Assembly: GCA_002292185.1 (NCBI GenBank)
Contig: DBBL01000045.1
Coordinates: forward strand, 1-6,107
DNA from: Akkermansiaceae bacterium UBA985
GTDB lineage: Bacteria > Verrucomicrobiota > Verrucomicrobiia > Verrucomicrobiales > Akkermansiaceae
Direction: 5' to 3'
Length of the DNA stretch: 6,107 bases
Below, one piece after another: positions 220-5,199 of the stretch; position 1 is the first letter of the stretch; every line of letters begins with the position of its first letter. The position numbers were made by a program, and so were the translations under genes. Below the pieces are notes generated by a model that did no database searches, had not been told where the DNA came from, and saw nothing but the letters and a program-made list of their open reading frames with translations.

Positions 220-921
220 TCAAAACTTGATGCGCATACCAAGCCCTGGATACTTCATTCCCCAATAGATCGCACTCAGAGACAGATTGTCGTTCAGAGA
301 CCTCGATAGAGATAAATGTGTATCGGTGCCGCTGTATTGGACTGTCAGAGAAGCTTCCTTGTGTCTCAAATGAACGCCGACCAGTGGCCTGATCTTGTCA
401 ATCTCTTCAATCCACACTGCCCCTGCGTATGGCGAAGGTGTAACACCCCAGAATTTCATATCCGGCATCGCTTTGCTTAATGTGAAGAAATAGCTACGTG
501 ATTCCACATCTGAGCCCTTGTAACTGAAATCATCCTCGCTGGTGCCTAGGATGACTGCCGGCCTCCAGCCAAGAGGATCTTCTGAAACAGCTCGGTAAGT
601 AGCCGTGATGCTGACATTGTCAATGAGAGGCCGGTAATCTACACCGAGACCTAGATCAGCTGTGGCCCAGTATTTGAAACTGGCAAAGATCTGCCCTGAA
701 TCCCCCTTTTCGGGAATCCACCTGCCACTCATTACAATCGGGTGACTATCTGATACGCCACTCACGGTGCCGCCTTCTCCTGGTCACATGGGTCATGTGG
801 GAACTTCCGATACAATCGGTGATGAAGCGACCGGCGGCGTTGGGCATGATGTCTCAGCCCAAGCAAATGAATGCGAGAAGCCTAATATTGCCATGGTGAG
901 TAAAAGCGGGATAACCTTCAT
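220..921 (-). CDS. putative secreted beta-barrel-like selenoprotein with a UxxU motif (two in-frame TGA codons)
   Basis: Read from ATG 921-919, the frame encodes 233 residues if two TGA codons (795-793 and 786-784) are read through. Residues 1-22 are a classic signal peptide: Lys2, a hydrophobic core and an Ala-Trp-Ala signal peptidase site. A Pro/Ser-rich linker with the only Cys (C26) follows, then Thr-Sec-Pro-Met-Sec-Pro with Sec at 43 and 46, equivalent to a CxxC motif. Residues 53-233 have alternating beta-strand character and end in Phe, as outer-membrane barrels often do. A SECIS-like hairpin (755-773) sits 10 nt after the second TGA. The frame is intact on both sides, both interruptions are TGA, and the same contig carries a SelW-type selenoprotein gene. 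The final stop is also TGA, with no similar hairpin placed after it. I recognise no family, so function is unknown; redox or metal binding is inferred from the motif. The alternative is a pseudogene, or re-initiation at GTG 765, which has AGGAGA upstream but would give no signal peptide. Confidence 0.62.
755..773 (-). promoter_or_regulatory. putative SECIS hairpin of the UxxU gene
   Basis: On the minus-strand RNA, seven stem positions (G-U, C-G, G-C, a G·G mismatch, C-G, A-U, C-G) close a five-base loop CGUGA. The loop G is 19 nt after the second UGA and 28 nt after the first. Both distances suit bacterial SECIS elements, where SelB recognises a loop containing a key GU. The hairpin has the same length and register as the one in the SelW-like gene, including the CCGUGNGU core. 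One hairpin may serve both UGA codons. Confidence 0.55.
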
Positions 922-989: not shown

Positions 990-1625
990 TTAATACAAAG
1001 GAAACTCATCTTCCCATTGCCAGTCTCGGGGGTCTTCGCTCGAGCCTTTGATGATTTCAGAGGGCAAGCTGATGAATTCCACATCCTTGGTTGTCTCAGC
1101 AGCCAGATGAAACTTCACCAGGTTACGCCCTGTGCCCTTGGTGCTCGTTATCGATACATCAGCCAATACCGTAATGTCCCCATCTTCGCGTGGATACACC
1201 TTCAACTTGCCTGGAATCTGAAATACCGCGAAAACTTTACCCGGTTCTTTCTCTGATGGTTCGAAGCTAGTCTGATAACCCAAATGCTCTTCAGGATACC
1301 AATCACTTCGTTTTGTCTTACTAGTCAGGACTTTGACTCGGTGCACGATCATGAATTGGTGTTGGTCTTTCTCACCTTCAGCTTCAACACGCCAGATAAA
1401 CGGCCCATCCAAAGTGGCTGAGCCTGCCATATAAATCATGGCTGAGAAGCCGAAACCAGAGTCCCCACCCATGGGTTTCACGGAACCTGTCACCTTTGCC
1501 CCGTTGATCTCAACGGCCTGACTCTTTTGATAGGTGTGGCTTTTAGTGATGATGTGACCACAAGCAGACAGCACAAACAAAATGATGACTGCAGGCATTA
1601 CACGGAAAAATGAACTGATCTTCAT
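990..1625 (-). CDS. hypothetical lipoprotein
   Basis: This 211-residue protein begins with a type II signal peptide: Lys2, Arg8, a hydrophobic stretch at about 9-18, and a lipobox Leu-Ser-Ala-Cys with the lipidated Cys at 22. I chose ATG 1625 over the in-frame ATG 12 nt upstream. The signal peptide is compact from there, and AGGA lies 11 nt before it, whereas it would almost touch the upstream ATG. The mature part is soluble, rich in charged residues and beta-prone, with a very acidic C-terminus (residues about 189-208). I recognise no known domain. Its gene lies 68 bp upstream of the UxxU barrel-like gene on the same strand, so the two are probably an envelope pair, though the second seems to have its own promoter. 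It diverges from the M48 protease gene. The stop is TAA. Confidence 0.8.
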   Translation of the reverse strand: MKISSFFRVMPAVIILFVLSACGHIITKSHTYQKSQAVEINGAKVTGSVKPMGGDSGFGFSAMIYMAGSATLDGPFIWRVEAEGEKDQHQFMIVHRVKVLTSKTKRSDWYPEEHLGYQTSFEPSEKEPGKVFAVFQIPGKLKVYPREDGDITVLADVSITSTKGTGRNLVKFHLAAETTKDVEFISLPSEIIKGSSEDPRDWQWEDEFPLY

Positions 1626-1692
1626 AAGAAATAACATCCTATATCATTTCCTGCATGATGAAAACATCCAATCAAGCTGGACACAGTCAGGT

Positions 1693-4108: not shown

Positions 4109-4963
4109 TTAAGCCTCAGAGATAATCCTCTGACGAATGCTCCCTATTTCTTTAATACCGAGCTCAACCTGATCCCCTACTGATAAGTAGTGCGGTGGAT
4201 TCATTCCCATGCCGACACCGGCGGGTGTTCCTGTCGCAATGATGTCGCCAGGTAATAGTGTCATGTATTTCGAGATATAGCTGACTAGATAAGGAATGCT
4301 GAACATCATATTTCCACTCCATCCGTTCTGTCTTTTATCTCCATTAACCTTGGTCCATAGGCACAAGCTGTGCGGGTCTGGAAGTTCATCGGTTGTCACC
4401 ATACACGGCCCAAATGGAGCAAAGGTGTCTAAACTTTTACCCTTCACCCATTGGCCGCTGCGCTCTTTTTGCCAAGCTCTCTCGCTATAGTCACAAAGCA
4501 CTGTGTAACCGGCAACATGACTCATAGCATCCTTTTCACTTATGTGTTTTGCCGTTTGTGCAATCACCACCGCTAGCTCAACTTCATAGTCGAGTTTTTT
4601 ACAATCCGTCGGGATCACAACGTCATCATACGGGCCAGAGCAGGCAGTGGTTGCCTTCATGAACAAGACGGGTTCTGGCGGCACCCCTCCACCAAATTCT
4701 TTTGCGTGATCGATATAATTCTTACCAACACAAATCAACTTCGACGGACGTGCAACAGGAGCTCCTCTTCTGACATCGACATCAACGGCACCTCCTCCAG
4801 GGCAGCCATCATCGACCCAGCTCTGAAGTGATTCCAATCCCCCGCAGGCAAAAAAACCTTCGTCAAAATCCCTAAATTCAGATGAAGCATCAACCAAGCG
4901 CCCATCGTTTAAAATAACACCCGGAGATTCTCTCCCGGGATCGCCGTGTCTGATTAGTTTCAT
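4109..4963 (-). CDS. fumarylacetoacetate hydrolase (FAH) family protein
   Basis: This 284-residue protein has the full FAH fold. The metal ligands are E127 and E129 (in DYEVEL) and D158 (in CDYSER). The His-Glu pair H86/E89 in VGKNYIDHAKE corresponds to the catalytic dyad described for FAHD1-type acylpyruvases and oxaloacetate decarboxylases. TGTPAGVG (244-251) and GKSLDTF (175-181) complete the signature. Family members cleave C-C bonds of acylpyruvates, decarboxylate oxaloacetate, or act on ureidoglycolate and related keto acids; the exact substrate cannot be told from sequence. The enzyme is cytosolic and Mg/Mn-dependent. Its ATG overlaps the TGA of the SelW-like gene upstream by 4 bp (ATGA), and no Shine-Dalgarno sequence is visible, so translation is likely coupled. 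It converges on the MoxR gene with only 22 bp between stops and no clear terminator. Confidence 0.92.
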   Translation of the reverse strand: MKLIRHGDPGRESPGVILNDGRLVDASSEFRDFDEGFFACGGLESLQSWVDDGCPGGGAVDVDVRRGAPVARPSKLICVGKNYIDHAKEFGGGVPPEPVLFMKATTACSGPYDDVVIPTDCKKLDYEVELAVVIAQTAKHISEKDAMSHVAGYTVLCDYSERAWQKERSGQWVKGKSLDTFAPFGPCMVTTDELPDPHSLCLWTKVNGDKRQNGWSGNMMFSIPYLVSYISKYMTLLPGDIIATGTPAGVGMGMNPPHYLSVGDQVELGIKEIGSIRQRIISEA

Positions 4964-5199
4964 GTGTTATTGGTATTAGATAGGGTCGAAAAAAGAGCTT
5001 TGGCCTCCCCCGTTGCAGGAAAAGCGCCTCCTCTCACTTTTTTCCAAATAAGATGACCATCCTTGCGTATTTCGAATATCCCTCCACTGCTAGCGATCAG
5101 TTTCACCTCTGCGCCAGTAGCTGCTTTTATCTCAGCTGACACACGGCCAGCTTCAGGTCCGTAATTTCATTGATTACAGTACTCAATTTCAATTGCCAT
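4960..5199 (-). CDS. SelW/Rdx-family selenoprotein with a CxxU redox motif
   Basis: From ATG 5199-5197 the frame encodes 79 residues if the TGA at 5169-5167 is read as selenocysteine. The start reads Met-Ala-Ile-Glu-Ile-Glu-Tyr-Cys-Asn-Gln-Sec-Asn-Tyr, which matches the first strand and CxxC/CxxU site of the SelW/SelT/SelH/Rdx thioredoxin-like family (C8, U11). The C-terminal half has the family core Gly-Gly-Ile-Phe-Glu-Ile (38-43), a Lys-Asp-Gly turn and Ala-Phe-Pro (58-60). The length is near the usual 75-100. A SECIS-like hairpin lies 14 nt after the TGA. The family is cytosolic, thiol-based and linked to redox control; the exact substrate is unknown. An in-frame ATG 21 nt upstream (5220) is possible, but the shorter start fits relatives better. 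A conventional reading gives only 60 residues from GTG 5142, without the active site. It overlaps the FAH gene by 4 bp. Confidence 0.85.
5134..5152 (-). promoter_or_regulatory. SECIS hairpin of the SelW-like gene
   Basis: The minus-strand RNA forms AGCUGGC/GUCAGCU with seven paired positions, including one G·U, and a five-base loop CGUGU. The stem starts 15 nt after the UGA, and the loop G is the 23rd nt after it. This fits the known bacterial window for SelB-recognised elements, which lie inside the coding region just after the UGA. Its geometry and CCGUGNGU core are the same as in the 755-773 hairpin. Confidence 0.75.

What the first reader, a model, noticed from the sequence alone, without database searches (positions are those of the whole stretch)
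220..921. Possible new selenoprotein family: secreted, barrel-like protein with a Sec-Pro-Met-Sec motif
A minus-strand frame with a perfect signal peptide and a 181-residue beta-rich C-terminal domain is interrupted only by two TGA codons, at residues 43 and 46. The frame matches on both sides, both interruptions are TGA and none TAA or TAG, and the spacing equals a CxxC motif (UPMU). A SECIS-like hairpin follows, and the contig has a second, better recognised selenoprotein gene. UxxU motifs in exported envelope proteins are rare, and I recognise no described family that looks like this. An annotation that stops at TGA would lose the signal peptide and motif.
Basis: partly seen in the sequence, partly recalled or inferred. 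Interest (0 to 1): 0.92.

Follow-up and report, generated by a model that had tools for sequence, protein, structure and literature searches.

The report
Overlooked double-selenocysteine outer-membrane barrel family
A gene in an uncultured bacterium and its relatives carries two conserved TGA codons that are predicted to be read as the rare amino acid selenocysteine, in a protein predicted to be an outer-membrane barrel that likely handles metal ions; ordinary gene annotation cuts this part off, so the family appears to have gone unnoticed.

Summary
In detail: window 220-921(-) is one frame with a signal peptide, TGA codons at residues 43 and 46, and a barrel domain. In the 29 genes (window included) whose motif could be read, the second codon is always TGA; the first is TGA in 26, Cys in 2, Met in 1; TAA and TAG never occur. 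A hairpin 10 nt after the second TGA covaries (22 compensatory cells against 6.0 in shuffles), and synonymous change there is ten times lower than in the barrel. All 17 carriers among 189 genomes of the order have selB and/or tRNA-Sec. Two AlphaFold models give 12-stranded barrels. Of 205 listed database relatives, 185 start where the motif ends and none keeps CxxCPG. The window's protein matches no Pfam or NCBIfam family, and no entry of a 2026 table of 119 families looks like it. In three genera the gene sits beside heavy-metal RND genes, once fused to their companion domain. I read it as a new selenoprotein family whose selenol arm likely binds soft metals; function is inferred, Sec insertion untested.

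The parts
220..921 (-). selenoprotein gene, 233 codons plus TGA stop, two in-frame TGA codons
   Evidence: (own genome match with 2 TGA inside)
856..921 (-). predicted signal peptide (about residues 1-22)
   Evidence: sequence as read; comparable hydrophobic N-termini ahead of the motif in related genes; no signal-peptide program was run
763..810 (-). conserved motif SEVPTUPMUPGEGGTV
   Evidence: V40 P41 U43 U46 P47 G48 E49 V53 invariant in the 20 members aligned (L023 and L024, which differ, were not among them)
793..795 (-). first in-frame TGA (residue 43, predicted Sec)
   Evidence: TGA in 26, TGT in 2, ATG in 1 of 29 readable genes
784..786 (-). second in-frame TGA (residue 46, predicted Sec)
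   Evidence: TGA in 29 of 29 readable genes
755..773 (-). predicted bacterial SECIS hairpin (3 bp, G-G mismatch, 3 bp, 5-nt loop) 10 nt after the second TGA
   Evidence: synonymous change suppressed
763..765 (-). GTG inside the hairpin that mechanical ORF calling takes as the start
226..738 (-). predicted 12-stranded outer-membrane beta-barrel (residues 62-232; Phe 233 follows)
   Evidence: AlphaFold2 pLDDT 84.0, pTM 0.76; fold matches
4960..5199 (-). second selenoprotein gene, SelW-like (CxxU), supports Sec use by this organism

Best explanation
Window 220-921(-) encodes a member of an unrecognised family of predicted selenoproteins: two conserved in-frame TGA codons, followed by a covarying hairpin, are predicted to be read as selenocysteine in a UxxUPGE motif on the mature N-terminal arm of a protein predicted to be a 12-stranded outer-membrane barrel, where the selenols likely bind soft metal ions, in some species beside heavy-metal efflux pumps. 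Shown: one frame, TGA conservation with Cys exchange at the first position, hairpin covariation, co-occurrence with Sec machinery, no all-Cys form among the relatives seen. Predicted: barrel fold, signal peptide, SECIS function. Inferred: the arm lies on the periplasmic side (N-termini of even-stranded outer-membrane barrels do, by established topology), and the two selenols (or Sec with Cys or Met) hold a soft metal such as Cu(I), Ag(I), Cd(II) or Hg(II) that the barrel passes out, gates on or senses.
For: TGA codons: (29 readable genes, window included: position 1 TGA 26, Cys 2, Met 1; position 2 TGA 29; no TAA/TAG). TGA is also the normal stop of this gene, so the code is not reassigned. 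SECIS: (96.7% of cells paired against 80.4% shuffled and at most 51.3% slid; 4 of 6 pairs with changes on both sides). Codons: before the first TGA pN/pS 0.42; motif and hairpin pS 0.052 against 0.529 in the barrel (13 pairs, not all independent). Sec machinery: own selB above cut-off, selA in two pieces; selB in 15 of 17 carriers against 38 of 172 non-carriers, selB or tRNA-Sec in 17 of 17 against 54 of 172. Barrel. Metal: in G095, G019 and G059 (three genera) the gene lies 0.06-2.3 kb from a CzcA/CusA-type RND gene (in G059 the contig holds only part of it, below the TIGR00914 cut-off); expected within 2.5 kb 0.04 for 20 genomes, P(3 or more) about 1e-5. These three, and none of the other 25 of 28 contexts, also hold a GPxGGR-domain protein, His-rich in G095 and fused to the barrel in G059. 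Met replaces Sec 1 in G023 and a Cys/His-rich stretch precedes the motif in G534, which fits soft-metal ligands better than a diselenide.
Against: No experiment. tRNA-Sec not found in the window's own assembly. 25 of 28 contexts show no such RND gene, the window's own included (its RND gene is on another contig); several contexts are short, and the proximity test was made after seeing them. The position of the motif relative to the barrel was not measured. Foldseek by itself gave only one match below E 0.001 with low TM-scores. Profile searches of 387 genomes across the phylum found only the own genome. 54 of 71 genomes with selB or tRNA-Sec lack the gene. Most known selenoproteins with known function are redox enzymes (PMC13188914).
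Confidence: 0.57

Rival explanations
1. Same predicted selenoprotein and barrel, but the UxxU pair is a redox centre: an outer-membrane-anchored diselenide/selenol that reduces peroxides or exchanges disulfides on the periplasmic side.
For: UxxU keeps CxxC spacing; many selenoproteins are redox proteins and Prx-like UxxU forms are known (PMC13188914 section 7 parts 1-2; PMC2398784 passages).
Against: No thioredoxin-like or other redox domain in Pfam or in the model; the first Sec is Met in G023, which cannot form a diselenide with Sec 2; the one recurrent functional context seen is metal efflux, though in 3 of 28 contexts only.
Confidence: 0.33
2. The TGAs are real stops: the protein starts at the GTG at 765 and the upstream piece is a leader or decayed N-terminus.
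For: A purine-rich Shine-Dalgarno-like stretch precedes the GTG, and 185 of 205 listed database proteins start at that place.
Against: A barrel needs a signal peptide and a signal-peptide-like start lies upstream in frame; upstream pN/pS 0.42; only TGA, never TAA/TAG, with Cys exchange; co-occurrence with Sec machinery.
Confidence: 0.04
3. TGA is reassigned to Cys, Trp or Gly in these genomes.
For: Two TGAs inside an open frame.
Against: The same genes end in TGA in the window, L018, L022 and L035; selB and selA pieces present; a hairpin follows the TGAs.
Confidence: 0.01
4. Assembly error or pseudogene.
For: The window is from a fragmented MAG (199 contigs).
Against: TGA stands at the second position in 29 genes from many assemblies and in a 97% identical copy in another MAG (L035); barrel pN/pS 0.18 among relatives.
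Confidence: 0.01

Closest known systems
UxxU selenoproteins (Prx-like PF00578; metal-binding/mercuric-reductase-like NF041115; FmdB TIGR02605)
   Same: Two predicted Sec residues spaced as CxxC; NF041115 is named a metal-binding protein (PMC13188914 Table 1).
   Different: Other domains; this protein matches none of their models, has the pair on an N-terminal arm of a predicted barrel, and no all-Cys relative was seen in 29 genes or 205 listed proteins.
GSU2204/MtrB-PioB outer-membrane selenoprotein (NF041027) and TonB-dependent receptor FCYXU selenoprotein (NF049945)
   Same: Selenocysteine in outer-membrane barrel proteins (PMC13188914 Table 1).
   Different: One Sec each by that table, other motifs, larger barrels (size recalled); no NCBIfam match here.
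Glycine reductase selenoprotein A (GrdA)
   Same: The one family formerly thought to lack Cys homologues (PMC12013277 passage, which goes on to say that several were then found).
   Different: One Sec in CxxU (table); not a barrel (recalled).
Outer-membrane barrels FapF (5o65), KdgM (4fqe), NanC (2wjq)
   Different: 10-12% identity; a shared barrel shows no function.

Membership tests
Selenoprotein (as a kind) | In-frame TGA conserved where homologues have TGA or Cys | tested here: met
   position 1 TGA 26, Cys 2, Met 1 of 29; position 2 TGA 29 of 29; no all-Cys form seen
Selenoprotein (as a kind) | SECIS hairpin just downstream of the TGA | tested here: met
   structure and covariation; its function is not tested; no Rfam family matches it
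Selenoprotein (as a kind) | Sec machinery (selA, selB, selC, selD) in the genome | tested here: inconclusive
   own genome: selB above cut-off, selA in two adjacent pieces each below the cut-off, tRNA-Sec not found, selD not tested; 17 of 17 carriers have selB and/or tRNA-Sec
Selenoprotein (as a kind) | Selenium incorporated at the TGA | not testable with these tools
   needs 75Se labelling or mass spectrometry
SelW-like selenoprotein (window 4960-5199) | Rdx domain with CxxU | tested here: met
   PF10262 60.2 bits, cut-off 22.6; TGA at residue 11
Prx-like / FmdB / NF041115 UxxU selenoproteins | Match to the family's profile | tested here: not met
   no Pfam match in the window's protein, two strays at E 0.009 and 0.022 in 20 members, neither of these families; no NCBIfam match in the window's protein and five other members
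NF041027 and NF049945 outer-membrane selenoproteins | Match to the family's profile | tested here: not met
   no NCBIfam match in the window's protein or five other members
Outer-membrane beta-barrel | Signal peptide, even-stranded closed barrel, C-terminal aromatic | tested here: inconclusive
   12 strands in two models, C-terminal Phe/Tyr in the members read; location not measured, no signal-peptide program run
FapF / KdgM barrels | Homology beyond shared fold | tested here: inconclusive
   fold only; no PDB sequence relative
DnaJ-type CxxCxGxG zinc motif | Several CxxCxGxG repeats pairing around zinc (recalled) | tested here: not met
   a single UxxUPGEG in the members; the eighth position is Ala in L015, L017, L019 and L020

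The most novel reading that the evidence does not exclude
A selenium-bound outer-membrane barrel family with no all-cysteine form, in Verrucomicrobiota and, to judge by where their proteins start, in Acidobacteriota too (a barrel relative in Planctomycetota as well), in which a selenol arm acts as a soft-metal trap or gate for the outer membrane; one lineage has built a five-selenocysteine version with a hairpin after each TGA. It stayed hidden because gene callers start at a GTG inside the SECIS and because selenoprotein searches that rely on Cys homologues cannot see it.
Probability: 0.4. Interest if true: 0.92.

Novelty: new variant of a known kind. Interest (0 to 1): 0.83.

Why it matters
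It adds a sizeable candidate selenoprotein family (763 and 886 database relatives of the barrel in two searches) with a predicted place (outer membrane) and possible chemistry (metal-binding selenol pair) unusual for selenoproteins. It exposes a systematic annotation fault: the cut falls exactly after the Sec motif, so the signal peptide and the conserved residues are missing from the listed records. No all-Cys form was seen, so the question of when selenium is indispensable becomes directly testable by Sec-to-Cys exchange, and the family gives a clean covarying SECIS set.

Tried and rejected
Own-genome tRNA-Sec: of the eight best hits to RF01852 taken as loci, seven hold a tRNA for Leu, Ser or Trp at the place and one holds none by ARAGORN, so I do not claim it. 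Rfam near the motif: nothing of note. Plasmid and viral collections, asked with acidobacterial-type queries only (P0162, P0150, A2): no relatives. Phylum-wide profile searches: only the own genome in 387, against 17 of 189 in the order with a single protein; I cannot tell sampling from insensitivity. Lipobox at the Sec: rejected, the Secs lie after the likely signal cleavage in short members (by eye). DnaJ-like zinc finger: rejected as membership. Reassigned code: rejected (TGA is also the stop). One search's second L037 hit (14170) is a chance pattern match and was dropped. G147 (L021/L059) and G540 (L065) start inside the barrel at contig ends and were left out of the motif count (31 genes, 29 readable). 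Alignment A1 left out L014, L021, L023, L024, L026 and L035. The first neighbour scan for GPxGGR missed the window by an error of mine; repeated with all 28 contexts, same result. The L079 gene in cluster 10 is CysN, not selB. YjbH and DUF5777 were seen only as one weak stray each in 20 members.

Full report
What is there. On the minus strand, 921-220 is one reading frame of 233 codons with two in-frame TGAs (residues 43 and 46) and a terminal TGA. Mechanical ORF calling gives only the last 181 codons, from a GTG at 765. The frame upstream begins like a typical signal peptide (by eye); downstream is a beta-rich domain ending in Phe.

Relatives and the two TGAs. A protein search found 61 relatives, 55 of them 181-187 aa, that is, cut at about the same place. 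Searching 189 genomes of the order found 17 carriers, the own genome included; one scan of named MAGs gave 8 further loci, labelled Akkermansiaceae or Verrucomicrobiales; 74 genomes of a second family gave 18 carriers, 14 of them already seen; 13 genomes of a third family gave 2, both already seen. In all, 31 distinct genes were held (window included); two start inside the barrel at contig ends. In the other 29, a search that allowed any residue or any stop shows position 1 as TGA in 26, TGT (Cys) in 2 (L024, L070) and ATG (Met) in 1 (L023, three repeats), position 2 as TGA in 29, and no TAA or TAG. TGA is also the normal stop of this gene in the window, L018, L022 and L035, so the code is not reassigned. 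V40, P41, both Sec positions, P47, G48, E49 and V53 are invariant in the 20 members aligned; L023 (Met at 43, Ser at 49) and L024 (Cys at 43) were not among these.

The hairpin. 10 nt after the second TGA (19 nt after the first) lies a stem of 3+3 pairs around a G-G mismatch with a five-base loop. On 25 distinct sequences RNAalifold returns the same hairpin. 96.7% of cells pair, against 80.4% in shuffles and at most 51.3% when slid; 22 cells have compensatory changes against 6.0 shuffled; 4 of 6 pairs have changes on both sides (24 of 500 shuffles reach that; 74 of 500 reach the number of pair types). The sequences were chosen by a pattern that fixes bases ahead of the stem and limits one stem column to G or C, not the rest. 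In 13 related pairs (not all independent) the stretch before the first TGA evolves as protein (pN/pS 0.42), the barrel likewise (0.18), and in the 12 codons after the first TGA synonymous change falls to pS 0.052 against 0.529 in the barrel, as an overlapping RNA element would cause. The spacing agrees with bacterial SECIS elements as I recall them.

Sec machinery. The own genome (1.95 Mb, 84.6% complete) has a selB piece above cut-off and a separate C-terminal match, both near contig ends, and selA in two adjoining pieces, each below the cut-off; tRNA-Sec was not found; selD was not tested. All three other sampled genomes of the genus have selB and tRNA-Sec but lack this gene. Over 189 genomes, selB (E up to 1e-60) is in 15 of 17 carriers against 38 of 172 others (Fisher 8.9e-8), tRNA-Sec in 11 of 17 against 50 of 172 (0.005), either in 17 of 17 against 54 of 172 (1.5e-8); shared ancestry is not corrected for. 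In G043 the gene ends about 30 bp from a convergent selB. The window also holds a SelW-like selenoprotein.

How far it reaches. A profile search and a search with L025 found 763 and 886 relatives, 120 listed each (the first scored only the 7993 best candidates), including proteins labelled Acidobacteria, Pyrinomonadaceae, Blastocatellia, Planctomycetota and Verrucomicrobia. Of the 205 distinct proteins listed in the three searches (the window's own cut protein included), 185 begin with [VM][SR][GA], the V-SG at the end of the motif, and none contains CxxCPG. For Acidobacteria this suggests, but without their DNA does not show, that TGA is conserved there; the planctomycete protein starts further in and tells nothing. 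Phylum-wide searches of 387 genomes found only the own genome.

Function. In three genera the gene lies beside a CzcA/CusA-type RND gene: G095 (its only one at E up to 1e-100, 1.1 kb away), G019 (2.3 kb; a cation-efflux-family gene between them) and G059 (58 bp; the contig holds only part of the RND gene, below the TIGR00914 cut-off). Expected number within 2.5 kb over 20 genomes is 0.04, P(3 or more) about 1e-5 (test chosen after the fact, two genomes have two gene copies, relatedness ignored). The same three, and none of the other 25 of 28 contexts, carry a small exported GPxGGR-domain protein: after the RND gene in G019 and G095 (in G095 a lipoprotein-like, His-rich one), and fused to the barrel in G059 (L024 and L081 domains E 2e-11; the G095 one, broken by a run of N, gave no alignment). 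G534 has a Cys/His-rich stretch before the motif. G023 has Met in place of Sec 1, in three motif repeats, and five in-frame TGAs in 454 codons, each followed by a foldable hairpin, the first one weak. Met plus Sec cannot make a diselenide but can hold a soft metal, so I prefer a metal role (0.57) over a redox one (0.33). Against it: 25 of 28 contexts, the window's own included, show no such neighbour.

What is known. The 2026 review PMC13188914 (section 7, parts 1 and 2 of 3 read, with the whole of Table 1; 119 families by its own count; passages) lists UxxU only for Prx-like, NF041115 and FmdB proteins, and outer-membrane barrels only as the GSU2204/MtrB-PioB and TonB-receptor FCYXU types; its UPGQ entry (PrdC form 2) is a different protein. 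PMC12013277 (passages) says its method may miss selenoproteins lacking Cys homologues, formerly thought to be only GrdA. PMC2398784, PMC9312934, PMC5877670 and PMC4807772 were seen in passages. The listings of searches showed no paper on this family in the held library; subscription papers, preprints and supplements were not searched.

Verdict. This is very likely a new selenoprotein family with unusual traits; the mechanism remains a proposal.

Noticed in passing
window 4960-5199 (-): SelW-like selenoprotein (Rdx) with TGA in CxxU; TGA-stopping ORF calling keeps only 60 codons.
   Followed up: partly
L023 1459-2820 (-), genome G023: Relative with five in-frame TGAs and no TAA/TAG in 454 codons: CTTU, PTU and three SSEVPAMPTUPGSG repeats, each TGA followed by a predicted hairpin (the first weak); a possible five-Sec protein.
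   Followed up: partly
L024 1045-2094 (+), genome G059: Cys-x-x-Sec form fused to an exported GPxGGR domain, 58 bp downstream of a CzcA/CusA-type RND gene.
   Followed up: yes
L070 (G534), upstream of the motif: Cys-x-x-Sec form with a Cys/His-rich stretch (DCSEHNHAPGEC) ahead of the motif.
   Followed up: no
L083 7617-10243, genome G043: The family gene ends about 30 bp from a convergent selB gene.
   Followed up: partly
G000 C52 1970-3305 (-): selA of the own genome is split into two adjoining frames (profile 1-184 and 210-452): frameshift or assembly error.
   Followed up: no
L081 7458-7931 (-), genome G019: Cys-rich protein directly downstream of the family gene in the metal-efflux context; no Pfam match.
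   Followed up: no
window 990-1637 (-): Putative lipoprotein of 215 aa next to the family gene with no Pfam match; also beside it in the near-identical L035.
   Followed up: no
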